Of a DNA stretch of 64,000 nt, positions 1-58,860 are shown piece after piece (position 1 is the first letter of the stretch; every line of letters begins with the position of its first letter). The notes beneath the pieces are model-generated. The model worked only from the letters and a program-made list of their open reading frames with translations. It was not told the DNA's origin and did not search any database. Position numbers and translations under genes: made by a program. Source of the DNA: Dastarcus helophoroides (taxonomy: Eukaryota > Arthropoda > Insecta > Coleoptera > Bothrideridae). The stretch lies in NCBI GenBank assembly GCA_028583605.1, contig CM053328.1:1-64000 (forward strand). The letters are read 5' to 3'.

Positions 1-28
1 AACATTTATTAGATTCGAAGTTTGGAAA

Positions 29-69
29 CCAAATACCGGTTTCGATCTTGTTAGATCTCGTCAGTTTGG
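29..69 (-). ncRNA. Type I hammerhead ribozyme
   Basis: On the minus strand: stem I 5' CCAAA (69-65), CUGACGA (64-58), stem II GAUCU/AGAUC with loop AACA, GAAA (43-40), stem III ACCGGU (self-complementary), cleavage base A34, stem I 3' UUUGG. An outer helix UUGG/CCAA beyond an internal loop extends stem I, as in natural type I hammerheads. All core positions match CUGANGA...GAAA...UH. Confidence 0.8.
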
Positions 70-411
70 TATATCCAACTCGAATGCTAATAAATGTTCC
101 GACATGTAAGTACTAAAACAATCACAGGCGTCGAGCGAGTGACTCTTTAGTACTACCACCTATTGGTCCATAGAGAAACTATGGCCATCGCCAACAATGT
201 CGTATGCAAAAAGAATGCAACCTAGACTACAAATTCATGCAGCCCTCCAGGCGGCGTGTATAGTGGTGAATCATAGGTAGCTGAACTACCAACAGTTGAA
301 ACACTGCCACCTAGCGAAGCGGTTGCTCTCTAGGAAAAATTTCCCAGAAGACAAGATTACTAATGCACAGACCAATAGGTTTGAACATTTATTAGATTCG
401 AAGTTTGGAAA

Positions 412-452
412 CCAAAGACCGGTTTCGATCTTGTTAGATCTCGTCAGTTTGG
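412..452 (-). ncRNA. Type I hammerhead ribozyme
   Basis: Second hammerhead of the same element. It has the same core and stem II as the one at 29-69, but the cleavage base is C417 (GUC-type site) instead of A. Stem I CCAAA/UUUGG is intact. Confidence 0.8.
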
Positions 453-465
453 TATATCCATATAT

Positions 466-8069: not shown

Positions 8070-8245
8070 ATTGATCTCGTTATTTTGGTATATTCAACTG
8101 ATTCAACTGGTATGTTGGCAAATATTCCGACAAGTAAGTACTAAAGAATTCAGGGATGTCAAGAGTGTGACTTCTTAGACTACCGTCACCTATTGGTCTA
8201 TAGAGAAACTATTTGTAGTCTAGGTTGCATTCTACTTGCATAATT
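8070..8245. repeat. Diverged retrozyme-like fragment
   Basis: Shares GATCTCGT, GGTATATTCAAC, CCGACAAGTAAGTACTAAA, CACCTATTGGTCTATAGAG and TAGTCTAGGTTGCATTCT in the same order as the retrozyme-like copies. The hammerhead core is destroyed, so this is an older copy. Confidence 0.6.
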
Positions 8246-18497: not shown

Positions 18498-21079
18498 TTA
18501 TTTATGTAAAAATTTCATTATTTTTTTGTTTCGTCTTACATCTCTTTTGTTCATTTTAAAGTCTTTAAAAAAATTTTTAACCATAGTTTTCATCATACTT
18601 GAAATAAGCAACTCTTTTATAAAATTCTTATGAACTGAACATAAATACCAATCAAAATTAACATTAGAAGATAAATACAACTGAAGCTTTTTATAAATAT
18701 CGAATTCATGACCATGATATTTCAAAGCTGTTAGTATTAAGTCATGTATGTGAGCAATATAAAAACACAATTGCTCAGATACATACTTAAGGCGTTTTTG
18801 ATCATCAAACTCTTTAAACAGGGTAAATAAGTAATGTTCTAAAATATTATCACTTAAAAGAGATTTGCTGCAGTCTTCGCAAGTGAAATCTAAAACTTTT
18901 TTGGTAAAAAAGCCCCCCACATATGTCAGCGCTTCCTTGTCAACAATAGCCAAATCCCGAGGAGGCAGAACTTGTATCAAGCACTTTTTCAGGTTATCAT
19001 TATCTTCTGAAAACATTTCAATTGGAGTGATAGATGGGGAAGTATCTGAGAGAAAATCAGTTAGATCTTCTAAAAGATCAAAGTCATCATCCTCGCAATT
19101 CTTTCCATAACTTCGTGGTATAATAAGCCCATTCAGAATACTAGTTTTAAGAGCACTAATAAACTGAAAAGGTGATGGATTTGTGTGTGCTCTTCCATGC
19201 TGTCTTATTATACTAAAAAGATTTTCAAGTGGATCTTGATTTAAATGTCGAGTTTGCAAGTACTGAAACCCTGCTTTTTCACAAATACTCCATACCATCA
19301 AAACTCCTTTAATCGTTTGAATCCAACCTGCTTTGCACCTTGGAGCCCTTGATGCAGATCCTGTTGTTCGATCTAAAAATTTCCAAAATTCAATTTTATT
19401 CAACATAGAATGCCAAAAAGTAACATGTTTACTCTTCTTACTCACACTATGCCTTAATTTCTTTCCTTCATTTCGAAAAGGTGTCGCGTTTAAAGAATCA
19501 AATAGTAAATCAATGTCTTTAACAAATTCTGCAGTGTGGGCAGCATTGGAAGAAATAATAGAATGCGATGCAAAAGCTTCCAGTGTAGCTGCCACTGTAT
19601 GACTCAAAGTTTTAGCTGCAATGGAAACTTTCATTTTTAAGTGTGAGTTAGGAAGATCCAAATATTCCCTTTTGATTTTATGTAACATTTGGAATCTACT
19701 TTTACTATCAATTTCATAACACTGAAGTATGTGGTCCCACTGGGCAACCTTACCATCCTCAAATTGAATGTTATAATTTTTTAAAGCATTTCTTGTATTT
19801 TTTAAAAGATGTGGGATATCATGCAGTATTACAATTTTTTGATGGTTTACCATAAAAAAAGTATCTGATTTGTCAGTATGACATTCCTCTATTTATTACT
19901 TAAAAGCAGCTGCATTTGTAGTTCCTTGATCTGATACACAACATACAACTTTAAGACCTATATTTTGTAATTCTTTAATAATTTCCTTTAAAATGACTTT
20001 TAAATGAGATGTTTTTATTTGATCTTTAGTAAAGTAATAGGCTAATGGTTGCTTCCATTTTTTCCTTAATCCTGAAATCATAAAAACTAAAGCATGGTTA
20101 GCCATTTCATTAAAACAACATAGCCAATTACTTTACCCAAGGTATGGTCATAATTTAAATCATATGATAAAGACATCTCATCGAACATTAAACAACAAAA
20201 TTTATCTAAGGATTTCATTTTCTTTACCCTTTGCTTCAATTTTTTAAAAACATGCTGATTAATTCCAGTATCAAAATTCAGATCGAAGAAGCGATTGCAG
20301 AGTAGAAATACTTGGTAATTTTAAACATCTTTGCAAAAATCTGTAGCTCCAGGGACCACATTTATAAAATGCTAACGCAAATGCTTTGTCTTGAGGAGAC
20401 CAACGTTGACCATGCAATTTTAAGAAACAATTTCTAAATTGAGATTTAATAAATTGAACACAATTACTTATACCTTGTTCAAGTTGTCTGAATAATTTTG
20501 TAGAAGATATAGAAGCTGCAGTTTGCAATTTATTTTTGGACTTTCTAATACGTCCTTTTAGGTTTAAAATTTGTTGTTTTTGAAATATCATACAGATATT
20601 TCTTACGAGGTGTCAATTGGTTGCTGCGAGTAACACCAATACTAGCCAACAAACCACCACTAGTAGAAGAAGCTACATTAATTGACGTATTGCAAGCTGG
20701 AGCTTCCTGGAAAGTTAATGAGTTATCAAAATTTAATTTTCTTTTTGCTGATACTATAACATCTGAAGATATATTCTCGTTAAGAGTAACATTATTTTCG
20801 GAAGCGCTCAAAGCTAAATTTGGAACAGCAAATTTATTTAATCTTATTTTTAATGTACTCGTAAAATCCTTTAATTGAAAGTGGTCCTCACAAATTCGTC
20901 TAAAATAACTATACTCAAAATTTGGAAAATGTTCTTTTATTTTATTTATCCAGGAGGAGCACAGATTTTCGCTTGATGGAAATTTAAAAAAAATGCTTAC
21001 CCTTTTGTTTATTTCCAAGTTCATATATATTGTAGCAATTTGGTATGCAACAAGCGTTAGTAGGCTTGAGGGATGCCAT
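18498..21079 (-). pseudogene. Decayed P-element-type transposase (THAP9-like)
   Basis: THAP start at ATG 21079 (MASLKPTNACCIPNC), with the C2CH pattern completed by ICEDHF and an AVPNL motif near its end. Next comes the N-terminal P-element region (QRWSPQDKAFALAFYKCGPW), then an RNase-H-like region with FDEMSLSYD (20170-20200), VVCCVSDQGTTNAAAF (about 19900-19950) and HDIPHLLKN (about 19810-19840). A 451-codon stretch carries the GTP-binding insert and C-terminal half (LNQDPLENLFSIIRQHGR). Lesions: an A8/T8 homopolymer at 20986-20993 shifts the THAP frame; further shifts lie near 20575-20592, 20272-20283 and about 20110; tandem TAA TAA stops are at 19893-19898. No P-type terminal repeats were located. 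The reading order is normal for the family, so this is decay in place and not a rearrangement. Confidence 0.88.
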
Positions 21080-21362
21080 TCTCACAATTTTTGATGTTAT
21101 TATTTAAACTTGTTAATTCAATTACCTAGAAACGCATTAAAAAATTAAATTCTACATTTAAAGTTATTTGAAATGGTCTTAAACAGATAATTTCAAACAA
21201 CAAATTCAGCTCAGTTAATGACTGATTTCACGTATTGTAAATACATGATTGATAATGAACTCATCATCATGGTTCTTTGGTAGTTTAACGCGGTTCCGAA
21301 ACTTTCGTTCCTTTGACCGCCGTCTTTTAGTGAACATTACTGTGTTGATAATTTTGTGAGCT

Positions 21363-27274: not shown

Positions 27275-27374
27275 TTTTGTTTGAAGGAACGGACTGATCC
27301 TTGGTTATCTTCAAAAATTGAAACACAGAACTTGTCCCCTTGGTTTCAGGGGACAAGTTCTGTGTTTCAATTTT
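27275..27374. mobile_element. Minimal foldback copy (100 bp) with 13-bp target duplication
   Basis: Contains GGAACGGACTGATCCTTGG, ATCTTCAAAAATTG and a tight hairpin (ACACAGAACTTGTCCCC / GGGGACAAGTTCTGTGT). It is flanked by perfect TTAGAGTTATTTT at 27262-27274 and 27375-27387. The hammerhead-like centre is absent. Confidence 0.8.
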
Positions 27375-27827
27375 TTAGAGTTATTTTGACATTTTGAAGT
27401 ATTTTGCGAAATTTCTAATTTTTTTTAATTCTTTTGCTGGTTTTAAAATTTTTAATTTGTTATATAAATTTCAACTTAATCAAAGAGTCGACTTTTTACA
27501 GCTTTTTTAAAAAAATGATGACTGGAAAATTTCGATGTTTTTTCAAAATTCCAATCTTTTTAAAAATATTTAATCAAACATTTTGATTCTTTAATTTTAA
27601 TTTAATTTAATTTAATTTTTAATTTTAACTAACCACAATTTTTCTCTTTCTCAACATTTCTACTCTTCATTTCTAGGTTTTTTGGAAGCTAAGAATTTTT
27701 TAACAATTTTCACTTTTCTTCAATATTTGGGCTCTTCAAAAATTTCGGATTTTTTTTTGAAAATTTGACTGACAATGTTTCACTTTTTTAAATCTACGCA
27801 TTTGTTCAACATTTTGTTTACCTGTTT

Positions 27828-29076: not shown

Positions 29077-29278
29077 AAATACAAGTCTTGTCTCCTGAAA
29101 AGAAAGATTAAAAAACACAACAAAGGTTGCTCTAACGCGTTTCGACAGCGAAGATGATAGCTTGGCTGTCGAAACGCTTTAGAGCAACCTTTGTTGTGTT
29201 TAGTTTTTCTTGGTTTCAGGGGGACAAGATTTGTATTTCAATTTTTGAAGATAATCAAGGACCAGTCCACTCCACAAA
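29077..29278. mobile_element. Foldback element of the hammerhead-like family (inside duplication copy 1)
   Basis: Arms AAATACAAGTCTTGTC...TTGCTCTAACGCGTTTCGAC and GTCGAAACGCTTTAGAGCAA...ATTTGTATTTCAATTTTTG. The centre GCGAAGATGATAGCTTGGC lacks the CTG of the hammerhead core. Confidence 0.75.
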
Positions 29279-30459: not shown

Positions 30460-30604
30460 TGTTTTTTTCAATTTAACATTTCTTCGGCCCAGTTTGGAAA
30501 TATTTAAATTTTTCTGGTTTAAATATTTCCAAACTGAGCCGAAGAAATGTTAAATAAATTGAAAAAAACATAATATTTCCGGTCAATAAGGGTCTACCAT
30601 GAAG
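30460..30604. mobile_element. Short copy of the TTTGGAAATATTTAAA foldback family, 12-bp target duplication
   Basis: 145 bp from TGTTTTTTTCAATTTAAC to ACCATGAAG. The inner palindrome is CAGTTTGGAAATATTTAAA / TTTAAATATTTCCAAACTG. It is flanked by perfect AATCCTTAAGAA (30448-30459, 30605-30616). The paralogous block at about 29290 lacks it, so it inserted after the 1.2-kb duplication. Confidence 0.85.
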
Positions 30605-32340: not shown

Positions 32341-32461
32341 AATTTTGTGCATCCCTAAGTTATTGGCAAAATTGAGTGGAGGGCCAAATTGGAAAGTGGG
32401 TCGCCAAGGGCTTTGTGCCAAAACTGCAACCGTTCAAACTAGAACCAAAATCACTCTCCTG

Positions 32462-32905
32462 GAGAAGAGTTTCGCCTCTGGTATGGTGGACATACTGAGT
32501 TAGCGTGCTCTTTTCTCTAAACTTTCTTATTCTTTGTACCCAATTTTCAATTCAGAAGAGTTTCGCCTCTGGTATGGTGAACATACTGAGTTACCGTGCT
32601 CTTCTGTCTAAACTTTCTTATTCTTTGTACCAATTTTCAATTCAGAAGAGTTTCGCCTCTGGTATGGTGGACATACTGAGTTACCGTCCTCTGATGGTTT
32701 CAAATTGGTCTTTTCATTCTTTCATTTTTGCATATTGCCTTATATTTCTCTTTTTATTTCTTGTTTCTTTTCTTTATTGCTGAAAAAGCCCCTACGATGG
32801 TGGGCGAAACGTCGAACATTTTTAGTAGTTCTTTGACACGGTCCAATCCCGGAAGAAGTATATCCTGTACTAACTCTGGGCGTGGAAGCCTTCGTTGTCA
32901 CATTT
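32462..32905 (+). mobile_element. Retro-like repeat: 105-bp tandem units followed by a decayed hammerhead
   Basis: Three units containing AGAGTTTCGCCTCTGGTATG and ACTGAGTTACCGTGCTCTT (starts near 32465, 32552, 32644), then a T-rich linker, then CTGAAAAAGCCCCTACGATG GTGGGCGAAACGTCGAAC (32780-32817). A 3' part with GACACGGTCCAATCCCGG follows. Order and content match the copy at 36601-37109 on the other strand. The hammerhead core has G8 changed to A, so it is probably dead. Confidence 0.7.
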
Positions 32906-32999
32906 TCCAATATTGAGGCAAACCCTGCCAACAACTTACCAAAAAACCTTTCGACTGCTTTCAATAGTCTCTCAAGAAGTCCCAACTATTGTCAGCGTT

Positions 33000-33590
33000 G
33001 TAGCATTTGCCTGTTTAATATACCCGGTCAGCAATAAGTTCTCTTAAAGAACTCTTACAATCAATATTTTTTAGAGTCTGACATCGGGAAATATTGTCAG
33101 AAAGTTAACATAAAGATTTCTCATGCTGAAGACATCTATCAAAATTATCTTATAGGTATTAGATGTCTGTAATCTGACGGCTAAGACAAGTTATCTAAAT
33201 GTTAACATTTCTGTGGCTCTTAAAGTCATCGCTCTCATGATATCTTTAAGATATCTTTCTGATTTAGATGCTGAACTGGAAAAGACGGGCGACATCGATT
33301 GGACTACTGAAGTTCTAACATGGACACTTCAGAATCACCTCGAATAGCTCAATCTCACTATATTGAGAAATTATTTTTTCTAGTGCACTTTTTATATCAC
33401 AAGATTTTTTAAGCTTGAGTGCCTATGTAATCGACGGATCTGAAACCTTGTATACGACCCTAAGCTTTCAAATTTCATATCACCTAATATTCAGTAACAG
33501 TAAAAGAAGATAATCGTGACTTCCTACAATAAAACTAGTTTTGAAGATAAAACTAGTTTCTGAAGAATCGTAAATGGGTGTATCTGACGG
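33000..33590 (-). other. Probable 3' UTR and downstream flank of the qtc-like gene
   Basis: Non-repetitive AT-rich DNA immediately after the stop codon. No clear polyadenylation signal was identified; an ATTAAA (minus) lies near 33011-33016. Confidence 0.35.
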
Positions 33591-33788
33591 TTAGGTCAGT
33601 CTCGCTTTTTCGATGTTGCTAATTTCCGTGGGGCTGAAGCCGAGGATACTCTGGATAGCCCTGAGATGTCCGCTCGAATTTTCTTTGTCTGTTAGGAAGT
33701 AATACACCGCCGATTTCAAAAACTGCAAAGTAACTTCAGGATCTATTTTGTTTTTGTTCTTTGCTTCCATCAGCTGCCTGTACATTGC
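33591..33788 (-). CDS. qtc: qtc-like coding exon 7, GRIP domain and stop (residues 500-564)
   Basis: Starts [18 protein letters not shown] after acceptor ATTTCAG and ends NIEKARLT then TAA. Residues about 512-560 match a GRIP domain: helix [15 protein letters not shown], a linker with DKENSSGHL, then [13 protein letters not shown] ending in a short helix. GRIP domains dimerise and bind Arl1-like GTPases on trans-Golgi membranes. The tyrosine common in golgin GRIP domains at the start of the first helix appears to be phenylalanine here (LQFLKS), so classic Arl1 binding should not be assumed. The 3' UTR is not resolved because no AATAAA stands out on the minus strand in the next few hundred bases. 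Confidence 0.92.
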
Positions 33789-34805
33789 CTGAAATCGAAA
33801 AAAAAATCAGCACGACACATGAACTTATTTTGCCTACAAATGAACATTATACTGTTAAAAAAGTGCAATATTTCAGAACTAGAGAATGGTGCGTTTGTGA
33901 ACACATTTTTGCAGATATTAAGCAACAAGTCATGCTAAAATCAGCGCCGTATCTAGAGATTTTGATATGTGGAGTAATCGTGCCGGAATGGAAGGGGTAG
34001 TCTCGCATAGAAATAATTAGTAAAATTGCCCGGAAAATGCCTGTCTCGCATCCAGCGAGGTTTTGTGTTGCGGATGTATAGAAGTGGAGACAAATAGAAG
34101 TTTTGTTTGGTCATCAAAACCGAGAGTATAGGATCTTTTTTTTTTGGTTGCCCAAAAAGCATACGCATAACCAACGAGCCAAATACTCTCAATATATCAA
34201 AGATAATAATGACCCGTGGCGCATCGCCCTTTGCAAAAGTTGGGCGCCTTAGTTTGGAGTCAATTAGTTGCTCTTTAAGTAAATCAAAATAAAGTAACTG
34301 TAACTAGACACCCTTTCACCTTTCATATTAATTGAAAATAATCTACATAATTTAACATATTTGTGTAGGATGGCCAAGACTAGCAAGAACATCAAATTCT
34401 TAAGGAATGTACACTTCTTGTGCTTGTTATTTATTAAAATGATAGTGATGCCAATTGGATGCCAATTTTTATAAGCGCATGCGTTAATACTAATCATGCA
34501 ATTACTAAGAGGCTATACCCATGCCTGTTTAACTGAGTATCGGTTTTTTTTACCTTACGAGCACCGAGTACCCATAACGAAAGAGCCTCTTTTGCGCTAA
34601 GCAATGGTGAGTTGTTAGAAGTTGATGCATAGTCTAAATCCTAAAAATTAATCCAATCAGACGAACACAAACGCTCCAATCTAACGACGAAATTGATTAA
34701 TGCATATTTCTGCGACTAATGTCAACAAATATATGTACAATGAAAATAATCATTAGTGCACATTATTTGGTTGGTTCAAATGAAAGAAAAAATGACACTA
34801 CATAC

Positions 34806-34901
34806 TTTAATATTGTCTAATTCGTTTTTAGTAATTTGAAGTTCTTGCAACAGCTCTGGAACTGAAACTCTCGAGGGATTGGGTCTGCCTATATCCATGA
34901 C
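34806..34901 (-). CDS. qtc: qtc-like coding exon 6 (residues 468-499)
   Basis: A 96-bp exon bordered by acceptor ATTTTAG and donor GTATGT, both phase 0. It encodes [20 protein letters not shown] followed by [12 protein letters not shown], a short loop and then a helix leading into the GRIP exon. It is found only by splicing logic. It fits because it links exon 5 to exon 7 in frame and continues the Leu/Glu helical pattern. Confidence 0.85.
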
Positions 34902-34947
34902 CTAAAATATTGTTATGTCAAGTATGGAACCCATTTGTTTTAAGTAT

Positions 34948-35007
34948 AACCACAAGAATAAGGGACAGTGGAAGACAGAGAGGAATTTGTTTCTTATTCT
35001 TGTGGTT
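34948..35007. repeat. Perfect 15-bp hairpin in the 119-bp intron
   Basis: AACCACAAGAATAAG (34948-34962) pairs perfectly with CTTATTCTTGTGGTT (34993-35007). It occupies half of the intron between coding exons 5 and 6, starting 13 nt from the donor. Confidence 0.75.
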
Positions 35008-35020
35008 TAACATTCTTTAC

Positions 35021-35189
35021 CATATTTTCCGACTTTCCTTCGTCCACATACTGCTTATATTGTTGTATATAATGTTCCTTACTTTTATTTTCTTCATCTT
35101 CTAATTTTTTGCACGTCTCCTCGAGTTGTTGCTCCAGCTCCTTGATTCTTTCTCTTGCTGCCTCCATTTCAGGCACTAGCTGCCAGTAT
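35021..35189 (-). CDS. qtc: qtc-like coding exon 5 (residues 411-467), third coiled coil
   Basis: After a T-rich tract and TTTAG, the first base A completes Arg411. The frame then reads YWQLVPEMEAARERIKELE and continues as an Arg/Glu/Lys-rich helix with leucine heptads, ending DEGKSENM. The donor is GTAAAG (weaker than the other donors), phase 0. The short intron after it (34902-35020, 119 bp) contains a perfect 15-bp inverted repeat. Confidence 0.9.
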
Positions 35190-35371
35190 CTAAAAAAATA
35201 TTTTTTTTCAATAACAAGCTTCTTTCAAGTCAGCTGCTTTTTTGTACGCGCTAGAGACCCGCACGAGTAAGTAAAAATGTAATCGGATTTTAATCACCGA
35301 TTACTTTTCCGAAATATGTAATCGGGAAATTGGCATCGTTGGCATCGTGGCATCGTTGACATCGTGGCATC

Positions 35372-35403
35372 CGTTGATTGAATATATATGTATTCAATCA
35401 ACG
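35372..35403. mobile_element. 32-bp minimal element: fused termini of the 3.7-kb CGTTGATTGAATA element
   Basis: CGTTGATTGAATA, a 6-bp spacer, TATTCAATCAACG: exactly the two ends of the element at 38231-41977. It is flanked by a 7-bp direct repeat TGGCATC (35365-35371, 35404-35410), the same duplication length as the large copy. The local sequence is a TGGCATCG-type short tandem run, so part of the flank identity could be coincidental. Confidence 0.65.
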
Positions 35404-35507
35404 TGGCATCGTACCGAATATACTCAGCAATCGTGCACTTTATATTATCAGTTTCGTGTTGCATGTAACAAGTTGACGTTTTCGTATGCAAGTTCGAGTT
35501 GGATATA

Positions 35508-35548
35508 CCAAACTGACGAGATCTAACAAGATCGAAACCGGTATTTGG
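35508..35548 (+). ncRNA. Type I hammerhead ribozyme
   Basis: CCAAA, CUGACGA (35513-35519), stem II GAUCU/AGAUC, GAAA (35534-35537), stem III ACCGGU, cleavage base A35543, UUUGG. Outer UUGG/CCAA pairing past an internal loop is present. Confidence 0.82.
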
Positions 35549-35884
35549 TTTTCAAACTTCGAATCTAATAAATGTTCAAACCTATTGGTCTGTGCATTAT
35601 AGAATCCTTGTCTTCTGGGAACTCTCCTAGAGAGCAACCGCTTCGCTAGGGGGCAGTGTTTCAACTGTTGGTAGTTCAGCTACCTATGATTCACTATACA
35701 CGCCTGAAGGGCTGCATGAATTTGTAGTCTAGGTTGCATTCTTCTTGCATACGACATTGTTGGCGATGGCCATAGTTTCTCTATGGACCAATAGGTGGTA
35801 GTACTAAAAAGTCACTCGCTCGACGCCTGTGAATGTTTTAGTACTTACTTGTCGGAACATTTATTAGCATTCGAGTTGGATATA

Positions 35885-35925
35885 CCAAACTGACGAGATC
35901 TAACAAGATCGAAACCGGTATTTGG
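35885..35925 (+). ncRNA. Type I hammerhead ribozyme
   Basis: Identical core to 35508-35548: CUGACGA at 35890-35896, GAAA at 35911-35914, cleavage base A35920. Confidence 0.82.
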
Positions 35926-35985
35926 TTTCCAAACTTCGAATCTAATAAATGTCCAAACCTATTGGTCTGTGCATTAGAAGTTGAC

Positions 35986-36580
35986 CTTTGTCGAAAAAAG
36001 AGTCGAAGTTTAGAGAATCAAAAATGTTCCAAAAATAAGAGATTTTAAAAATTAGTTTACATTTAAAAAAATGTCAAAATTCAGAATAAATGAAATTTTC
36101 TATAATATTGAACGTTTGAAAAATAAGACAAATCAAAACAATTTCAAATTTTTAAAAGAAATCGAAATTTTAGAGTTGTATTTTTCAATAAACGATAACA
36201 TTTTGAAAAAATCAAGAAGTTAGGAAAAAGTCGAAATTTTTTTAAAAAAATTAAAATTTTTAAAACGTCGAATATTTTGAAATCAAAATTTTCTTTAAAA
36301 AAAATCGGAATTTCGAAAATTGTCAAGATATTCATAGAAAGTTAAAATCTCCAGAAAAAAAGTTAAGGGTTTCTCAAAAAATGTCAAAATTTTAACATTC
36401 TTCAAAAAATTCGAGTATTTTAAAAAATGACGAAATTTTCAACAAAATTATAAATTTTTGAGAAATATTTTGAGAAATAATCTAAAATTTCGGAGCCACA
36501 ATTATAAAAAATTGTCGGGATTTAAACAAATTAAAGAATTTTTAATCAACTTTTGAAAAAACCTAAATTTTTAAAAGGTC
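35986..36580. repeat. Purine-rich degenerate repeat tract
   Basis: GTCGAAATTTTAAAAA-type motifs; no gene. Confidence 0.5.
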
Positions 36581-36600
36581 ACTCTTAAGTAAAGTGACCT

Positions 36601-37109
36601 GAATATGATAACGAAGGCTTCCACGGTCAGTGCAGTCAGTACAGGATATACTTCTTCCGGGATTGGACCGTGTCAAAGAACTACTAAAAGTGTTCGACGT
36701 TTCGCCCACCATCGTAGGGGGCTTCTTCAGGAACAAAGAAAGAAAAATAGATGAAAAGAGGAATATGAGGGAATATGCAAAAAAGAAAAAGGTCAATTTC
36801 AAAACATCAAAACTCAGTATGGCCACCATACCAGAGGCGAAACTCTTCTGAATTGAAACTTGGTACAAAAGAAAGTTTAGGCAGAAGAGCACGGTAACTC
36901 AGTATGTCCACCATACCAGAGGCGAAACTCTTCTGAATTGAAACTTGGTACAAAAGAAAGTTTAGGCAGAAGAGCACGGTAACTCAGTATGTCCACCATA
37001 CCAGAGGCGAAACTCTTCTGAACTGAAACTTGTTACAAGATAAGAAAGTTTAAACAGAAGAGCACGGTAACTCAGTATGTCCACCATACCAGAGGCGAAA
37101 CTCTTCTGG
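36601..37109 (-). mobile_element. Retro-like repeat with 10-bp target duplication: three 105-bp units plus hammerhead
   Basis: Flanked by perfect AAAGTGACCT at 36591-36600 and 37110-37119. Read on the minus strand: three and a fraction tandem units (TTTCGCCTCTGGTATGG...), a T-rich linker, a hammerhead-like motif at 36734-36692, then GACACGGTCCAATCCCGG and the end. There is no coding region. The layout resembles the ribozyme-bearing terminal repeats of Penelope-like retroelements or a non-autonomous derivative; that link is inference. Confidence 0.75.
36692..36734 (-). ncRNA. Hammerhead-like ribozyme with minimal stem III
   Basis: Minus strand: stem I GUUC (36734-36731), CUGAAGA, one extra A, stem II GCCC/GGGC, GAAA, stem III reduced to ACGU, cleavage base C, stem I GAAC (36695-36692). 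The core matches CUGANGA...GAAA...UC. The unpaired A before stem II and the two-base stem III make activity as a monomer doubtful. Confidence 0.55.
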
Positions 37110-37119
37110 AAAGTGACCT

Positions 37120-37840: not shown

Positions 37841-39015
37841 GGCACCTTTAGGAATGTCAAAATATGTCCGCGTATCGAAGGTGTCCGTCAGAGACTAAAT
37901 AGACTGAACTTAACACGGTAAGCAGTGAAGCCAGTTGAAAGCCTAGCGAAAGCCTAGCTCCATCTAGCTCGCAATGCCCTCTTATTATTTGTCAGACCTT
38001 TGCGAAGATAACATCGTTTTTTTTTTAAAGAAAATGGGCTGTAAATATGGGGAAGTGTGTTGTGGATCATTGTTGAAACCTCAGTGAACACATTAGTGAA
38101 GGAAAATCAAGAGTTTCATTCTTTGGGTGGGTAAAAATAAAATATATAAATATTCAATTATCGGCGTGCGCGCGTCGCCATTTCACTGCAATCATGACGT
38201 GTTTACAGCACTGGCTTAACAATATTGTACCGTTGATTGAATATAGTATAAAATTTAAAAAGTCGAAATTTCAGTCAATTTTTGGAAAAAGTTAAGATCT
38301 TCAAAAAAAGTTGACTTTTTTAAAAAGGTCGAAATTTTAGAAAAATTCGTGATTTTTAAAAAAGTCGAAATTTTGAATAGTTGAAAATTTCAAAGATGTC
38401 AAAATTTTGAAAAAAGTGGAAATTTTCATTTCATTTTCATAAAAAGTTAAATTTTCAAAAAAAATCAAAATGTTTAAAGAAAGTCTAAATTTTGAATAGT
38501 TGGAAAACAAATTTAAAAAAAAGGCAATTGCCAAGTTTTCCTAATTTAATTTTTTTGCAGCGCTTATGTTGTCAGTTAGCGTTAATTAGGATGAGTCATG
38601 ACTTTCTACACCAAAGATAAAATGGGACCAAAAAAATGTTTGATTTAATAATTATTATTGCAGTATTATGGTATAAGAGTTGTCTTTAATAATTAAAAAA
38701 AATAATACGCACAGCTTCTTTCTTAAACACAACTCAAGCCGGTTTGAAAACATATACATTCTGAAATTCCAAAAATTCTGTAAACAATAAAAAATAATTT
38801 CAAAAAAATAATGATTTTTATAAATAAATTAATTAAAGTCAACAAAGACTTTAAAAACGAATTTACATAAACTACAAATGTTAAGGAAAAAGTTGAGATT
38901 TCGAATTTAAATTAATTATATATCAATTAAATTCATTTACAAAAAGTTTATCAGAAAATATGCATACATAATCCTTTTCCACCAGTTTATTGTTGGATTT
39001 ATTTAATTTTATTTA

Positions 39016-39152
39016 AAATTTCTACGACGCAGTTTGGAAATATTTAAATTTTTATTAATCTTTGTTGACAATATTCGAAAACAGTTTTTGAATATTGTCA
39101 ACAAACATTAATAAAAATTTAAATATTTCCAAACTGGGTCGTAGAAATTTTA
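39016..39152. repeat. Foldback of the TTTGGAAATATTTAAA family, middle-sized copy
   Basis: Arms of about 68 bp (TTCTACGACGCAGTTTGGAA ... TTTGTTGACAATATTC) mirror each other almost perfectly around a 2-bp centre. The flank CCAATAAAAGTCCACCATGAAG (39182 onward, split here by reading) matches the family end seen at 30604 and 42999. Confidence 0.75.
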
Positions 39153-40019
39153 AATTAAATTAATAAACATAATGTTTCCGACCAATAAAAGTCCACCATG
39201 AAGAATAAACTTTTGGGGATGTTTAATTGAATTCAGTTAAAGACAAATACAACGATATATTTAGCCAATATTCTAGCTAATTCAAACAACAATTGTAATG
39301 CCAGACTTGCCATTTACCCACTCATAAAACAGGTTTTATTTTGCCTGGTGCTGGAGGCTGGAGTGACCCATTATTTAAGGGTTTCATTCATTGACACATT
39401 CTTAACAGAATAGACTCACATCTGAGAAATGTTGAATATTTCTTTAAAGTAATATAATAATAGGATAAGTACTATTTAATGTTGACCCTAGCAATTGGAT
39501 GCAAATAGGAGCTAGCTCATTGGAAATTCCCAAAGTAAACTAAGTGCTTCATTCCATGATTTTGATATTATGAACATATTGATAAGATTTATATGCAATC
39601 ACAATCACAACTGAAAGTGCAGACCGTTTTAATTTGCTTGGGACAGAACAGGAGTCAACTTATTTTCATCATATACAGGTTGAATCAAATTTGATTTCCA
39701 CTACAAGGATCTCGTAAACCATTGGAAATACAAGAAAGCCTAATGGGAAAAGTAGTACAGAATTTACTGTCTAACATTATTCCGCTGAGAAAACAATTGA
39801 ATTCCAATTCGTCTTGATTTTATTTAGAAAATATTTTATTTAATATGATTTAAATAAATTTCTGTTAAAATTGATTTGTTAAAAGCTCATTAAAGCAAAT
39901 ATATAATAAATACAATTTAATTTTGAATTTGTCACGAAATACAAGGAATATAACATTTAAATGTTGCTAAAAAAGTCAGGAATGTAATCAAAATTTCAGT
40001 AATTTCGTATTTTGCACTG

Positions 40020-42299: not shown

Positions 42300-42986
42300 A
42301 CATGGTAACCACAATTTGTTTGCTTACTTATTATTTCCGTTTTTTCAGATATCATACATCAGAAATGTCTTGGAACTTGGAATTTCTTTTTTTTTAATTT
42401 ATGTTCAAACGTGATTTAAAGTTGAAAGTCTACAGTTCGAAGAAAACTCGAAATTTCGACAGAGACGAAATTTCAAATTAATGCTCAACATTTTTAACGT
42501 TAAGAAATAAAGTTGTAAACTTTAAAATCAAAATTTTGAGAAAAGAGCAAAAATTGTGAAATTTCTAAAAACGTTTTCTTTTTTTTTTTGGTGGAATGGG
42601 TCCTTGGTTATCTTCACAAAAGTTCTGTATTTCAATTGTAAAAACATGTTAAAAAAGTGAAAATGTTAAAAAAAGCCCGACACAAGTTCAATCTGAAATT
42701 TTCAATTTTTTTCCTCAAAACTTCAAATCAAAGTTTTTATAAAACAATCAATATTACAAAATTACTATTGTTTTTTTATATATCTTAACATTTTTAAAAT
42801 TTTAAGTTAAATCTTGACATTTCTAATTATTTTCTTAGGTCGAGAATTTGTGATTAAAATACAAATCCAGAAAAAATGCTAAAGGACGATTATTAGAGTT
42901 TTCTAAAAAATGTTGGACTTTAAAGTTGAAATTTTACCCCAAAGTGAACATTAAAATATGACCTCTGGAAATTTCGATTTTAATTA
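42300..42986. other. AT-rich intronic DNA with a fragment of the foldback family
   Basis: Mostly AT-rich filler. 42588-42640 (GGTGGAATGGGTCCTTGG, ATCTTC, GTATTTCAATTG) is a terminal fragment of the hammerhead-like foldback family. Confidence 0.4.
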
Positions 42987-42998
42987 AAGCATCAATTC

Positions 42999-43608
42999 TT
43001 CATGGTAGACCCTTATTGACCGGAAATATTATGTTTTTTTCAATTTATTTAACATTTCTTCGGCCCAGTTTGGAAATATTTAAATTTTTATGGTTTGTTG
43101 ACAATTTTAAAAACAGTTTTTGAAATGCGACTACGTGATATTTAAATTTATTGAAAACGTCACTTCATAAAAATTAAAATTAAAATTTCCTTATTTTTCT
43201 TTTTTATATTTAAAAAAAAAATAAAAAAAAAAATTATTTTTAAGTATTTCTTCCCCATTGTTCCCTTTCCATGTTATGCACTGCTGACGAGCTCAAATGA
43301 GAGCGAAACATCGATGTCCAGTGCTACAACCTCTTATATGTATTTTTTTATATTTTCCTAATTTATCAAAAAAACAAAATTTTTATTTTTTCCATATCTA
43401 ATTTTTGGTCTACTATTTTTCATTATTCCTATTCTATGTAAAATAAACTAACCTTTTAATTTGTAAACTGTCATGAAGTGACGTTTTCAATAAATTTAAA
43501 TATCACGTAGTCGCATTTCAAAAACTGTTTTTAAAATTGTCAACAAACCATAAAAATTTAAATATTTCCAAACTGGGCCGAAGAAATGCTAAATAAATTG
43601 AAAAAAAC
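42999..43608 (+). mobile_element. Foldback retroelement-like repeat with an internal hammerhead, 12-bp target duplication
   Basis: 610 bp flanked by perfect AAAGCATCAATT at 42987-42998 and 43609-43620. It starts CTTCATGGTAGACCCTTATT. Arms of about 118 bp (about 43050-43168 and 43474-43590) contain CAGTTTGGAAATATTTAAA, TTTGTTGACAAT and GCGACTACGTGATATTT and mirror each other closely. The single-copy centre holds the hammerhead at 43278-43324. The long target duplication points to copying through RNA rather than cut-and-paste. Shorter derivatives are at 30460-30604 and 39016-39152. Confidence 0.85.
43278..43324 (+). ncRNA. Type I hammerhead ribozyme, complete core
   Basis: Stem I GCACUG (43278-43283) / CAGUGC (43319-43324), perfect 6 bp. 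CUGACGA at 43284-43290. Stem II GCUC/GAGC with loop AAAUGA. GAAA at 43305-43308. Stem III is the palindrome ACAUCGAUGU. Predicted cleavage after C43318. Every conserved position agrees with the hammerhead consensus CUGANGA...GAAA...UH. Confidence 0.85.
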
Positions 43609-43619
43609 AAAGCATCAAT

Positions 43620-44880
43620 TTTTAAATTGAAGCGAAAATTTTGGAATCTAAAATTAAACTTTCGAAATTTTTCTCGAAATTAGAGTTTAAGTTCCAATGT
43701 TGAGGACAAACTCGAAATTGTGGGAATTTTTTTAAATATATAAAACTTTTTTCAACATTATGACTTTTTCATCCGGAATTAGGATCTATTTATTCAAAAA
43801 TTTGATATTTTTATTTTAAATTGCGATTTCAAACTAAAATTTATAAAAAAATTCAAGATTTCAAGCTTTAACTTCAAACTGAAACCAAGAATTCAAACAT
43901 TGAGAGACACTCAAAATTTATAAAATAGAAATTCGAGTTTTGACACCGAAAGTTGAGAAAGTGGAAATATGTCTGAGCTGAAAAATTTTGTTTAAATACC
44001 GAATTTTTATAACATATTTTCGACATCAATTTTTTTATGAAAAATCAAACAATCAAGTTAATTTTCAAATTGTACATTAGTTTTTTTTTCATAGTTTTCA
44101 TTTTGATTAGAAATTAAGTTTTTTTTATTTTTAATTGTAATTTTCCTCTTTCGAGTTTCCAAATTTCTAAAAAAACTCGATTGTTTAAGATTCAAAGTTT
44201 CGACAACAAACACTCGAAATTTAGCTACAAAATAAAACTTTTTTTGATTCTTGTTCATTTATTTTAAAATAAAAAATGTGTAACTACTTTTTCATTCTTT
44301 AGGTGAAGTTTCGATGGAGACCTGGTTTACGTCGAAGATATCCTTCGACGAATTTACTGTTTCCTTTCAATATGTTTCACTGAAATATTCTTTGATGGAG
44401 AACTGGTTTACATTGAAGATATCCTTTGGCGAATTTACTTTTACCTTTCGATATGTTTCAGTAAAATATCCTTCGATGGAGAACTGGTTTACGTTGAAGA
44501 TATTCTTTGGCAAATTTACTTTTTCCTTTCGATATGTTTCACTGAAATATTCTTCGATGGAGAACTGGTTTACATTGAAGATATCGGAATTTTGAGAATC
44601 GAAATTTTTAGAATAATCGAATTTTGAGAAATGATGATACTTTGAAGAAATCAGTTTTGATAAAGGAAGGTCAAATTTTATAAAGAAATTCGCAACTTCA
44701 GGAAAAAAATACAAATTTTGTGAATAAAAACGCATTTTGAGAAAAAAAAATCGAAATTTTGAGAAAGTCGAAAGTCGACTTTTGAGCAAGTCGAGTTTTG
44801 AGAGAGTCGACTTTTGGGAAAAATCGAAATTTTCTCAAAAACTTTGAAGTATCAACTTTGATAACGAAAACCAAAGTCAA
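43620..44880. repeat. AT-rich tract with an 84-bp tandem repeat
   Basis: 44318-44590 holds three and a half units of about 84 bp (GATGGAGAACTGGTTTAC, TTGAAGATATCCTT, TTTCGATATGTTTCA), open on both strands by chance of the period. From 44596 to 44880 it matches the unit of the 55.7-58.9 kb array (GATAAAGGAAGGTCAAATTT, AAGTCGAAAGTCGACTTTTG). Confidence 0.7.
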
Positions 44881-47836: not shown

Positions 47837-48189
47837 CTGCAAACAAATATCTGTTATATGTTTGTTACAGCTCCTGAAATATGATTATTTTATGATTAGA
47901 AGGATTGGTGATGCTAAATTAAAGGTACGGAGGCTGCCCCCCACTGAAAAGTTATATAAACCAAGGTTATTTGCGTAATTAATTCACGTGCACTTAAATA
48001 TTGGTTCATGTAATATGAAAGACGCCTGTACTGCAAAATTAAATTAAAAAATTGGATTGCAAGTTCTAATCTAAAACTTTACACAATTTGCCAATGATTT
48101 TTTGGTGAAACGGACCGGTCCTTGGTTATCCTGATTGATTTTGCACAGACCAATAGGTTTGAACATTCATTAGATTCGAAGTTTGGAAA

Positions 48190-48230
48190 CCAAATACCTG
48201 TTTCGATCTTGTTAGATCTCGTCAGTTTGG
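48190..48230 (-). ncRNA. Type I hammerhead ribozyme, slightly mutated stem III
   Basis: Same core as the other retrozyme-like copies, but stem III reads ACAGGU instead of ACCGGU. CUGACGA, stem II, GAAA and stem I are intact. Confidence 0.72.
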
Positions 48231-48306
48231 TATATCAAACTCGAATGCTAATAAATGTTCCGACAAGTAAGTACTAAAACATTTATTAGCATTCGAGTTG
48301 GATATA

Positions 48307-48347
48307 CCAAACTGACGAGATCTAACAAGATCGAAACCGGTATTTGG
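48307..48347 (+). ncRNA. Type I hammerhead ribozyme
   Basis: CCAAA, CUGACGA (48312-48318), GAUCU/AGAUC, GAAA, ACCGGU, A, UUUGG: the consensus core of the family. Confidence 0.8.
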
Positions 48348-48989
48348 TTTCCAAACTTCGAATCTAATAAATGTTCAAACCTATTGGTCTGAGTATAGAA
48401 TCCTTGTCTTCTGGGAACTCTCCTAGAGAGCAACCGCTTCGCTAGGTGGCAGTGTTTCAACTGTTGGTAGTTCAGCTACCTATGATTCACTATACACGCC
48501 TGGAGGGCTGCATGAATTTGTAGTCTAGGTTGCATTCTTCTTGCATACTGATTGATTTTGATTAAATGATTTTTTATCAAAAGAATCTTAACTTTTATTA
48601 ACCAAAACCTCCACTTATTTCATATTTCAGGGGGCCTTATTTCGAATGAGGTGCTTCAAACGTCGGAAAAAAGTTATAATCTATGGCAGACATTTTTGGG
48701 AAATATGGGGATTACGCCAAAGGAGCCTAACCGATAGAGCTTTTGTACGATATCTTGCATTTTCATGGAGCAGAATAAATCCATTTTATCAACTCAAAAA
48801 TGATCCCCTTCATCACTTTTAGTGGAATTAATCAATTTCGTGGTAACCATCAATCAATCTGATCTTAAAAATGAATGACGAATCATACCTTGCCCAAAAT
48901 TAAGAGAATTCAATCTAATCTTGAAAATGAATGACGAATGCTTAAAATTAAGGCAATTCATTTTGCAGACTTATGTCAGAATTTCGGTG

Positions 48990-51904: not shown

Positions 51905-54900
51905 GATATTGTACGAACGTTTTTGTTAATAAATCATCTCTTTTCCAAATTTCAGTTATTTTTGTTTTAAATCATGAGCTTATAAAAAAATCTGACATTT
52001 TCAACATTAAAAATTTCAAACTGAAACTCGAAAAGAAAATATATTTATTTTTCGAGTTTCAGTTTGAAATTTTTAATGTTGAAAACGTCAGATTTTTTAT
52101 AAGCTCATGATTTAGAACAAAAATAACTGAAATTTGAAAAAGAGATGATTTATCATTCTCTTGTTCTCAAAATTTTCACTTTTCCATAAAAAAAATCGTG
52201 CAAGTTTCGAGAAAAAGGCAAATTTTCATATAAAAGTCAAAATTTTCAGAAAAAGACGAATTTTGAGCGAAATTTCGAAAAAAAAACGACTAATTTCGAA
52301 ATAAAAACTCGACTTCTTAGAAAGTAAAATTCGAAGCAAGGGAAATTTTAAAAGAAAAAGACAAATTTTGTGAAGAAAGACGAATTTTGAGAATCAAAAA
52401 TTTTAGTTAAACTCGAAATTTTACGAACGTTCTTGTTAATAAATCATCTCTTTTTAAAATTTCAGTTATTTTGGTCTAAATCATGAGCTTATGAAAAAAT
52501 CTGACATTTTCAACATTAAAAATTTCAAACTGAAACTCGAAAAGAAGATATATTTATTTTTTGAGTTTCAGTTTGAAATTTTTAATGTTGAAAAGGTCAG
52601 ATTTTTTATAAGCTCATGATTTAGAACAAAAATAACTGAAATTTGAAAAACAAATGATTTATCATTCTCTTCTTCTCAAAATTTCCACTTTTCCATTAAA
52701 AAATCGAGCAAGTTTCGAGGAAAAGGCAAATTTTAATATAAAAGTCGAAATTTTCAGAAAAAGACGAATTTTGAGCGAAATTTCGAAAAAGAAAAACGAC
52801 AAATTTCGAAACAAAAACTCGACTTTTTAGAAAGTAAAATTCGAAGCAAGGGAAATTTTAAAAGAAAAAGACAAATTTTGTGAAGAAAGACGAATTTTGA
52901 GAATCAAAAATTTTAGTTAAACTCGAAATTTTACGAACGTTCTTGTTAATAAATCATCTCTTTTTTAAATTTCAGTTATTTTTGTTCTAAATCATGAGCT
53001 TATAAAAAAATCTGACATTTTCAACATTAAAAATTTCAAACTGAAACTCGAAAAGAAGATATATTTATTTTCTGAGTTTCAGTTTGAAATTTTTAATGTT
53101 GAAAATGTCAGATTTTTTATAGGATCATAATTTAGAACAAAAATAACTGAAATTTGAAAAAGAGATGATTTATCATTCTCTTCTTCTCAAAATTTCACTT
53201 TTCCATCAAAAAATCGAGCAAGTTTCGAGGAAAAGGCAAATTTTAATATAAAAGTCGAAATTTTCAGAAAAAGACGAATTTTGAGCGAAATTTCGAAAAA
53301 GAAAAACGACAAATTTCGAAACAAAAACTCGACTTTTTAGAAAGTAAAATTCGAAGCAAGGGAAATTTTAAAAGAAAAAGACAAATTTTGTGAAGAAAGA
53401 CGAATTTTGAGAATCAAAAATTTTAGTTAAACTCGAAATTTTACGAACGTTCTTGTTAATAAATCATCTCTTTTTTAAATTTCAGTTATTTTGTTCTAAA
53501 TCATGAGCTTATGAAAAAATCTGACATTTTCAACATTAAAAATTTCAAACTGAAACTCGAAAAGAAAATATATCTATTTTTTGAGTTTCAGTTTGAAATT
53601 TTTAATGTTGAAAAGGTCAGATTTTTTATAGGATCATAATTTAGAACAAAAATAACTGAAATTTGAAAAAGAGATGATTTATCATTCTCTTCTTCTCAAA
53701 ATTTCCACTTTTCCATCAAAAAATCGAGCAAGTTTCGAGGAAAAGGCAAATTTTGACATAAAAGTCGAAATTTTCAGAAAAAGACGAATTTTGAGCGAAA
53801 TTTCGAAAAAGAAAAACGACAAATTTCGAAATAACAACTCGACTTTTTAGAAAGTAAAATTCGAAGCAAGGGAAATTTTAAAAGAAAAAGAAAAATTTTG
53901 TGAAGAAAGACGAATTTTGAGAATCAAAAATTTTAGTTAAACTCGAAATTTTACGAACGTTCTTGTTAATAAATCATCTCTTTTTAAAATTTCAGTTATT
54001 TTGGTCTAAATCATGAGCTTATGAAAAAATCTGACATTTTCAACATTAAAAATTTCAAACTGAAACTCGAAAAGAAAATATATCTATTTTTTGTTTCAGT
54101 GTGAAGTTTTGAATGTTGAAAATGTCAGATTTTTTATAAACTCATGATTAAGAACAAAAATAATTGAAATTTGAAAAAGAGATGATTTATCATTCTCTTC
54201 TGTTCAAAATTTCCACTTTTCCATCAAAAAATCGAGCATGTTTTGAGGAAAAGGCAAATTTTGATATAAAAGTCGAAATTTTCAGAAAAAGTCGAATTTT
54301 GGGCGAAATTTCGAAAAAAGAAAGCGACAAATTTCGAAATGAAAACTCGACATTTTTAGAAAGTAACATTTTAACGAACAAAGTTTATTTAGAAATAAAT
54401 TGGAAATTTCAAAAGAAAAAGACAAATTTTGTGAAGTAAGACGAATTTTGACAATCGAAATTTTTAGTTAAACTCGAAATATTACCAACATTTTTGTTAA
54501 CAGAGCATCTCTTTTTTAAATTTCAATTATTTTTGTTCGAAATCATGAGCTTATAAAAAATCTGACATTTTCAACATTAAAAATTTCAAACTGAAATTCG
54601 AAAAATAGATAATTAAATATTATTCTCAAAATGTCTACTTTTTCATCAAAAAATCGAACAAGTTTTGAGCAAAAGGCAAATTTTGATATAAAAGTCGAAA
54701 TTTTCAGAAAAAGTCGAATTTTGAGCGAAATTTCGAAAAAAGAAAGCGACAAATTTCGAAATGAAAACTCGACATTTTTAGAAAGTAACATTTTAACGAA
54801 CGAAGTTTATTTAGAAATAAATTGGAAATTTAAAAAAAAAAGACAAATTTTGTGAAGAATGACAATCGAAATTTTTAGTTAAACTCGAAATATTACCAAC

Positions 54901-55640
54901 ATTTTTGTTAACAGAGCATCTCTTTTTTAAATTTCAATTATTTTTGTTCGAAATCATGAGCTTATAAAAAATCTGACATTTTCAACATTAAAAATTTCAA
55001 ACTGAAATTCGAAAAATAGATAATTAAATATTATTCTCAAAATGTTTACTTTTTCATCAAAAAATCGAGCAAGTTTTGAGCAAAAGGCAAATTTTGATAT
55101 AAAAGTCGAAATTTTCAGAAAAAGTCGAGTTTTGGGCGAAATTTCGAAAAAAGAAAACGACAAATTTCGAAATGAAAACTCGACATTTTTAGAAAGTAAC
55201 ATTTTAACGAACAAAGTTTATTTAGAAATAAATTGGAAATTTTAAAAGAAAAAGACAAATTTTGTGAAGTAAGACGAATTTTGACAATCGAAATTTTTAG
55301 TTAAACTCGAAATATTACCAACATTTTGTTAACAAATCATCTCTTTTTTAAATTTCAATTATTTTTGTTCGAAATCATGAGCTTATAAAAAATCTGACAT
55401 TTTCAACATTAAAAATTTCAAACTGAAATTCGAAAAATAGATAATTAAATATTATTCTCAAAATTTCTACTTTTTTATCAAAAAATCGAGCAAGTTTTGA
55501 GGGAAAGACATATTTTGATATAAAAGTCGCAATTTTCAGAAAAAGTCGAATTTTGAGCGAAATTTCGAAAAAAGAAAACGACAAATTTCAAAATGAAAAC
55601 TCGACATCTTTAGAAAGTAACATTTTAACGAACGAAGTTT
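51905..55640. repeat. 510-bp tandem array whose units contain long hairpins
   Basis: GAACGTTCTTGTTAATAAAT recurs at about 51915 (variant), 52424, 52935, 53445 and 53955. Each of these units has a nearly perfect inverted repeat of about 125 bp (TCTAAATCATGAGCTTAT / ATAAGCTCATGATTTAGA, CTGACATTTTCAACATTAAA / TTTAATGTTGAAAATGTCAG). Three later units (about 54483, 54895, 55316) are about 415 bp and have lost one arm. No gene; short frames recur with the period. Confidence 0.9.
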
Positions 55641-55649
55641 ATTTAGAAA

Positions 55650-58600: not shown

Positions 58601-58860
58601 ATGGCGATACTTTGAAGAAATCTCTTTCGATAAAGGAAGGTCAAATTTTATAAATAAATTCGCAATTTCAGGAAAAAAATACAAATTTTGTGAATAAAAA
58701 CGCATTTTGAGAAAAAAAATCGAAATTTTGAGAAAGTCGAAAGTCGACTTTTGAGAAAGTCGAGTTTTGAGAGAGTCGACTTTTAGGAAAAATCGAAATT
58801 TTCTCAAAAACTTTGAAGTATCAACTTTAACGTACAATTTTCAGAAAAAGCTTTCGAAAT
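55650..58860. repeat. AAGTCGACTTTTGAG tandem array, about 360-520-bp units, with minisatellite insert
   Basis: GATAAAGGAAGGTCAAATTT recurs at about 55750, 56110, 56625, 57757 (variant), 58142 and 58631, with AAGTCGAATTTTGAG and AAGTCGACTTTTGAG runs between. 56755-57440 is a block of the GTCGAAATTTCGAGAAAAAA minisatellite. A related piece lies at 44596-44880. Confidence 0.85.

What the first reader, a model, noticed from the sequence alone, without database searches (positions are those of the whole stretch)
35478..35977. Insect retrozyme: direct hammerheads bracketing a 377-nt unit
Two identical type I hammerheads in the same orientation flank a non-coding middle, with a possible 8-bp target duplication. 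Seen: all core bases, stem II, stem III and stem I including an outer helix. Known: plant and animal retrozymes are small non-autonomous retroelements that produce self-cleaved circular RNAs of this size, and animal ones carry type I hammerheads and are thought to use Penelope-like machinery. Inferred: this family (also at 1-465 and 48144-48547) is such a retrozyme and its circle would be 377 nt.
Basis: partly seen in the sequence, partly recalled or inferred. Interest (0 to 1): 0.9.

Follow-up and report, generated by a model that had tools for sequence, protein, structure and literature searches.

The report
Insect retrozyme with Penelope-style insertion ends
A small non-coding jumping element carrying two self-cleaving ribozymes is real and repeated across this animal's genome, and the layout of its copies suggests they were written into the DNA from both sides of a cut, using a circular RNA as template and machinery like that of Penelope retrotransposons.

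Summary
Two same-orientation hammerheads 377 nt apart bracket a non-coding unit, well beyond chance. The element is an animal (non-LTR) retrozyme, a known kind. Two corrections: stem III is one or two base pairs at most, and the target duplication is 12 bp with one mismatch, not 8.

The new part comes from the window's own genome (538.9 Mb). Of 41 copies parsed, 36 have a target duplication, mostly 12-13 bp. In 34 of the 36 the insert is a pair of head-to-head blocks whose outer ends are two fixed points of the unit, one of each: X near c206 and Y near c60. None is X/X or Y/Y. Blocks reach 2,060 nt and run across the self-cleavage point. Cut sites follow a palindrome, TTTRAY^N12^RTYAAA. A second hammerhead family (712-nt unit; window 42998-43608) follows the same rule with ends about 37 nt apart, like the "tail" of Penelope-like elements.

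Best reading: both target strands prime reverse transcription of a circular RNA at two internal sites, with Penelope-like machinery. The Penelope partner was not found because that genome search did not complete. No RNA data were available.

The parts
35470..35481 (.). left target duplication AAGTTGACGTTT (one mismatch to the right copy)
35482..35492 (-). short antisense block, outer end X (c211)
   Evidence: exact inverted copy of 35744-35754
35493..35976 (+). sense block, c327 round to c56; outer end Y
35495..35566 (+). first hammerhead, predicted cut after 35543
35544..35920 (+). 377-nt unit (c1-c377) that would form the circle
35872..35943 (+). second hammerhead, predicted cut after 35920
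35978..35989 (.). right target duplication AAGTTGACCTTT
48131..48142 (.). left target duplication of copy B, CTGATTGATTTT
48143..48283 (-). copy B, antisense block with hammerhead, outer end Y
48278..48547 (+). copy B, sense block with hammerhead, outer end X; overlaps the antisense block by 6 nt
48548..48559 (.). right target duplication of copy B
1..460 (-). copy C, two hammerheads, cut by the contig start
464..478 (+). copy C, inverted 15-nt piece (14 of 15), outer end near c187, not X
8073..8242 (.). copy D, decayed: antisense block then sense block ending at X; hammerhead core lost
42986..42997 (.). left target duplication of a family-2 insert, AAAGCATCAATT
42998..43608 (.). family-2 insert: antisense block (X2 end) to about 43185, then sense block (Y2 end)
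43269..43341 (+). hammerhead of family 2, 37.5 bits to Hammerhead_HH9
43609..43620 (.). right target duplication of the family-2 insert
30460..30604 (.). family-2 mini insert without hammerhead (Y2 left, X2 right), 12-bp duplication AATCCTTAAGAA on both sides
38998..39210 (.). old family-2 insert without hammerhead, 82-83% identity, block ends at Y2 and X2, no duplication found

Best explanation
The locus is an insertion of a non-autonomous animal retrozyme. Inferred cycle: tandem copies are transcribed, the hammerheads cut the RNA into 377-nt monomers, and a host ligase closes them into circles. An endonuclease with two symmetric half-sites makes a staggered cut with about 12-nt 3' overhangs at TTTRAY^N12^RTYAAA. 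Both 3' ends prime reverse transcription of the circle, one at internal site X (about c206), the other at site Y (about c60). Each cDNA runs round the circle, often more than once; the two cDNAs are joined head to head at a variable point, and filling the overhangs leaves the 12-13-bp duplication. The machinery is most likely a Penelope-like element (PLE). Shown here: anatomy, ends, duplications, target motif, block lengths. Inferred: transcription, self-cleavage, circularisation and the enzyme.
For: Ends: of 41 loci parsed, 36 have a duplication of 8 bp or more; of these 24 are Y-left/X-right, 10 X-left/Y-right, 2 'Y and other', 0 X/X, 0 Y/Y; duplication 12 bp in 20 and 13 bp in 8 of the 36. 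Random flank pairs reach a duplication score of 12 or more in 2 of 290. Template: 59 of 79 aligned blocks exceed one unit (longest 2,060 nt), they cross the self-cleavage point 142 times, and 1 of 79 block 5' ends lies within 3 nt of it. Target: pooled half-sites (n=72) read TTTRAY next to the cut, C at -1 p 3.3e-10, T at -5 p 1.0e-7; half-sites of family 2 (n=32) score well above background on that motif, z 5.1. Family 2, with no detectable likeness to family 1 beyond the hammerhead core: of 18 loci, 13 are classed automatically as one X2 plus one Y2, three more by eye, none X2/X2 or Y2/Y2. Hammerhead: 0 of 1,603 core letters differ from the majority and 132 of 132 complete cores are intact in the 39 genome loci. 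Sense and antisense blocks of one locus are more alike than across loci (0.97% v 1.16%; 7 of 2,000 permutations as low; 31 loci). PLE match: a purified PLE cuts and extends both strands, prefers ATT, and starts at two internal RNA sites whose spacing is the 30-40-bp tail (PMC11167929, parts 1-2 of 4 read); rotifer Penelope copies have head-to-head inverted pLTRs, a 31-bp tail on one of them and duplications of 8-10 bp (PMC3846280, passages).
Against: No PLE was found: 20 of the 29 ORFs listed were scanned and show no reverse transcriptase, and the genome search for GIY-YIG did not complete. X and Y of family 1 are about 147 nt apart, not 30-40. The strict one-X-one-Y rule goes beyond the published in vitro result, which saw no difference of start site between the strands. 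The copies are those ranked most similar to the query, so long and intact ones are over-represented. Five of 41 loci lack a duplication; L034 and L070 show one block only; copies C and D of the window each have an end at neither X nor Y. Family 2 fits the target motif less well than family 1 (mean score 0.40 v 1.52; background -1.40). The hammerhead as a whole is not unusually conserved (rank 66 of 377 windows). No RNA evidence.
Confidence: 0.72

Rival explanations
1. Same two-sided target-primed mechanism, but the template is an uncut linear multimer transcribed from a tandem array, not a circle.
For: Genomic blocks are tandem, so read-through transcripts are multimeric; cDNA 5' ends are scattered over the unit; in the PLE study hammerhead mutants were still inserted (PMC11167929).
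Against: 132 of 132 complete cores are intact, so multimers should be cut; loci hold blocks of up to 2,060 nt, over five units. None of this excludes the multimer.
Confidence: 0.2
2. A LINE, not a PLE, moves the retrozyme, and the inverted structure is twin priming (recalled from knowledge of L1).
For: Head-to-head inversions with a few bases of overlap at the junction occur in L1 twin priming (recalled); overlaps here average 4.2 nt against 0.7 by chance, though BLAST over-extension inflates this.
Against: 34 of 36 inserts with a duplication have two fixed ends, one of each; LINE inversions are a minority and have one fixed 3' end (recalled). Family 2 has a tail of PLE length.
Confidence: 0.12
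3. The units are deletion derivatives of a PLE of this genome (its pseudo-LTRs without the gene) rather than independent retrozymes. This concerns origin and can be true together with the best explanation.
For: Family 1 has a minimal stem III like PLE hammerheads as described in PMC7761336 (passages); the reduction idea is in print (PMC11722881, passages).
Against: Not tested: no PLE of this genome was seen. Two families with no likeness beyond the core would need two such origins.
Confidence: 0.2
4. Palindromic DNA transposons (MITE-like) that picked up hammerheads.
For: Inverted ends; the window copy 42998-43608 and two mini copies look like MITEs on their own.
Against: Variable number of tandem units per block, variable inversion point, ends that differ between the two sides.
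Confidence: 0.03
5. Assembly artefact (inverted duplications from chimeric reads).
For: Inverted duplications are a known artefact class (recalled).
Against: Flanking target duplications, a shared target motif, two different fixed ends and the same rule in two families.
Confidence: 0.01

Closest known systems
Metazoan non-LTR retrozymes (Cervera and de la Pena 2020, PMC7229834)
   Same: Type I hammerhead, short non-coding tandem repeats (377 nt is within 170-400), low GC, duplications longer than 4 bp, self-paired circle.
   Different: Two-block head-to-head inserts with fixed X and Y ends are not described there: 'inverted', 'opposite orientation' and 'twin' do not occur in its main text. Family 2 has a 712-nt unit, above the reported size.
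Penelope-like elements of the Penelope/Poseidon clade (PMC11167929, PMC3846280)
   Same: Head-to-head inverted ends, a tail on one side, both strands cut and extended, AT-rich target with ATT, hammerhead.
   Different: No reverse transcriptase or endonuclease gene in the unit; family 1 spacing is about 147 nt; strict one-X-one-Y use; duplications mostly 12-13 bp.
Amphibian hammerhead repeats (HHR_Amex1, described in PMC7229834)
   Same: Stem III of one pair with a palindromic tetraloop, so cleavage may need a dimer.
   Different: Unit length (330 and 350 bp in the axolotl) and host.
Plant LTR retrozymes (as described in PMC7229834 and PMC7761336)
   Same: Hammerheads in direct repeats around a non-coding middle.
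   Different: Type III hammerheads, 4-bp duplications, PBS and PPT, LTR machinery.

Membership tests
Metazoan non-LTR retrozyme | type I hammerheads in direct repeat around a short unit | tested here: met
Metazoan non-LTR retrozyme | no protein-coding gene | tested here: met
   no ORF listed over 35478-35977 (130 aa or more, 90 aa or more)
Metazoan non-LTR retrozyme | GC below 45-50% and unit of about 170-400 nt | tested here: met
   41.9% GC, 377 nt; family 2 at 712 nt does not meet the size
Metazoan non-LTR retrozyme | tandem copies from dimers to multimers at many loci | tested here: met
   111 matches at 40 loci, 1,627 first-look candidates of which 40 scored; blocks up to 2,060 nt
Metazoan non-LTR retrozyme | target duplications longer than 4 bp | tested here: met
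   36 of 41 loci with 8 bp or more, mostly 12-13
Metazoan non-LTR retrozyme | self-cleavage, and circular RNA in tissue | not testable with these tools
   no RNA data; only the predicted fold, z -7.2
Penelope-like element | own ORF with reverse transcriptase and GIY-YIG endonuclease | tested here: not met
   no ORF in the unit; it is not itself a PLE
Penelope-like element | head-to-head inverted ends with target duplication | tested here: met
Penelope-like element | 30-40-nt tail on one end, i.e. two internal start sites | tested here: inconclusive
   family 2: about 37 nt; family 1: same arrangement, about 147 nt
Penelope-like element | a PLE present in the same genome | not tested
   genome search for PF01541 did not complete

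The most novel reading that the evidence does not exclude
A circular RNA is held by a two-headed reverse transcriptase at two fixed internal sites; each strand of a palindromic target takes a different site, and both cDNAs run round the circle and meet head to head: two-strand, rolling-circle target-primed reverse transcription, used by two unlike hammerhead RNAs of one genome.
Probability: 0.5. Interest if true: 0.82.

Novelty: new variant of a known kind. Interest (0 to 1): 0.66.

Why it matters
What moves animal retrozymes, and whether the circle is the template, is open in print: PLEs are called a strong candidate (PMC7229834). The rule found here, one X end and one Y end per insertion in two families with a shared palindromic target, can be checked in any assembled genome and makes the question testable in vitro with a circular template and a purified PLE.

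Tried and rejected
Chance hammerheads: rejected. MITE reading of window 43032-43609: held, dropped when the genome showed a 712-nt tandem unit with one X2 and one Y2 end. Direct-repeat reading of the 48144 copy: wrong, it is inverted. Linear self-cleaved monomer as usual template: rejected, 1 of 79 block 5' ends lies at the cut point. Exact-pattern scans of viral and genome contigs with the hammerhead: 0 hits each. X and Y close together in the folded circle: suggestive only (graph distance 16, rank 25 of 377 pairs of equal spacing). PLE in the genome: asked, never answered.

Rows dropped before counts: window copies C (runs off the contig) and D (decayed) are outside the 41 loci. The permutation used the 31 genome loci with both blocks; conservation counts left out the window copies. 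Half-sites of family 2 come from 16 loci; L059 was parsed later and is not in them. Win39 has no duplication. Three family-2 ends (L062, L067, L073) and the X piece of L025 were judged by eye. The junction-overlap figures include values from -17 to 64.

Full report
1. Observation. The repeat at 35493-35599 / 35870-35976 is 107 nt, 98% identical, spaced 377. Each repeat holds a type I hammerhead: stem I 6 bp with internal loop and outer helix, stem II 5 bp; stem III is one A-U pair over CCGG, or two pairs around a 2-nt loop. Predicted cuts lie after 35543 and 35920. No Rfam match reaches its gathering score. The permissive scan gives Hammerhead_HH9 at 32.1-34.4 bits for these two and four more copies of this family, and 37.5 bits for a different hammerhead at 43269-43341. 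A strict descriptor finds all seven, and 1 of 2,000 shuffled windows has a hit; the thresholds were set after seeing the motif, and a looser descriptor hits 20 of 300 shuffled windows.

2. Corrections to the anatomy. The duplication is 12 bp with one mismatch (35470-35481, 35978-35989). Between it and the first repeat stand 11 nt that are the exact reverse complement of 35744-35754. The copy at 48143-48547 is an antisense block joined head to head to a sense block, with an exact 12-bp duplication. The copy at 1-460 is cut by the contig start (the window is contig C4 from base 1); beside it stands a 15-nt inverted piece (14 of 15) whose outer end is near c187, not X. The decayed copy at 8073-8242 has a sense block ending at X, but its other end is at c357, not Y.

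3. The genome. G000 has 538.9 Mb in 50 contigs. The search gave 1,627 first-look candidates, of which 40 were scored, with 111 matches. I fetched the 39 other loci and parsed them together with two window copies, 41 in all. The layout is: duplication, antisense block, inverted junction at a variable place, sense block, duplication. The outer end of one block is X (c200-211, commonest 206), that of the other Y (c51-62, commonest 60). Of 36 loci with a duplication 34 obey this (24 in one order, 10 in the other), none is X/X or Y/Y, and 2 have Y with an unscored second end: L025, which by eye has a 10-nt piece ending at X, and L034, which has an antisense block alone. The five without a duplication (L019, L023, L028, L029, L037) each keep one X or Y end. 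If each side chose X or Y independently, half of the inserts should be X/X or Y/Y.

4. The template. 59 of 79 aligned blocks are longer than one unit, the longest 2,060 nt. They cross the hammerhead cut point 142 times, and 1 of 79 block 5' ends falls within 3 nt of it. A linear self-cleaved monomer therefore cannot be the usual template; a circle, or an uncut multimer, can. All 132 complete hammerhead cores in the 39 genome loci are intact, with 0 of 1,603 core letters changed, although the search favoured intact copies and the hammerhead as a whole ranks 66 of 377 windows for conservation. The two blocks of one locus are a little more alike than blocks of different loci (0.97% v 1.16%, 7 of 2,000 permutations as low), as expected if one RNA species serves both. 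The unit taken as a circle folds well below shuffled sequence (z -7.2).

5. Target site. Pooling both sides of 36 sites gives a half-site TTTRAY next to the cut, that is TTTRAY^N12^RTYAAA (72 half-sites). This implies two symmetric cuts that leave 12-nt 3' overhangs, each of which can prime one cDNA.

6. A second family. The hammerhead at 43269-43341 first looked like part of a MITE. In the genome it belongs to a 712-nt tandem unit. With three window copies this makes 18 loci. 17 have a duplication; 13 of these are classed automatically as one X2 (c322-330) and one Y2 (c287-296); three more (L062, L067, L073) fit by eye; L070 has X2 only; none is X2/X2 or Y2/Y2. The old window copy at 38998-39210 has Y2 and X2 block ends but no duplication. 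X2 and Y2 are typically about 37 nt apart. Beyond the hammerhead core the two units show no detectable likeness (alignment score 27; the five best of 50 shuffles 24-28). Half-sites of this family match the motif of the first (z 5.1, n=32), less strongly than the first family does, which points to the same or a similar endonuclease.

7. Comparison with what is known. Metazoan retrozymes are described as short tandem repeats with type I hammerheads that give circular RNAs, and PLEs are named as a strong candidate for moving them (PMC7229834, parts 1-4 of 6 read). A purified PLE cuts and extends both strands, prefers AT-rich DNA with ATT, and starts reverse transcription at two internal sites whose spacing is the 30-40-bp tail (PMC11167929, parts 1-2 of 4 read); it saw no difference of start site between strands, and 'retrozyme' and 'circular' do not occur in its text. 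Rotifer Penelope copies are head to head, with a 31-bp tail on one of the inverted ends and duplications of 8, 9 or 10 bp (PMC3846280, passages). Family 2 reproduces this pattern including the tail length. Family 1 reproduces it with about 147 nt between the sites, which lie near each other in the predicted fold (suggestive only). I saw no description of this footprint for retrozymes in the listings or in the parts and passages read; these were title and abstract listings apart from the papers named. Eight held papers use the terms animal, metazoan or non-LTR retrozyme. The PLE hammerhead papers of 2014 and 2017 and the 2021 PLE survey are not held, so they may hold more.

8. Limits. The partner PLE was not seen: 20 of 29 listed window ORFs were scanned and show none, and the genome search for PF01541 did not complete. 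No RNA was examined. The sample is the best-scoring copies.

Noticed in passing
window 32451-37116: The retrozyme sits between inverted arms (32463-32904 and 36602-37019, 86%) built on an 85-91-bp tandem repeat; probably nested in a larger inverted-repeat element.
   Followed up: partly
window 2587-5068 (-): YqaJ-like recombinase domain with pieces of a Mutator-like transposase in the same and neighbouring frames.
   Followed up: no
window 18501-21081 (-): P-element-type transposase with THAP domain; the best-scoring named relatives are beetles at 38-44% identity.
   Followed up: partly
window 9217-12702 and 54204-58841: Long degenerate arrays of a roughly 20-bp repeat and longer periods built on it.
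   Followed up: no
window 27306-27382 and 29115-29199: Near-perfect palindromes that match microRNA families below their gathering scores; probably small palindromic repeats.
   Followed up: no
window 35330-35412: Short tandem TGGCATCG repeat with a 16-bp hairpin just upstream of the retrozyme.
   Followed up: no
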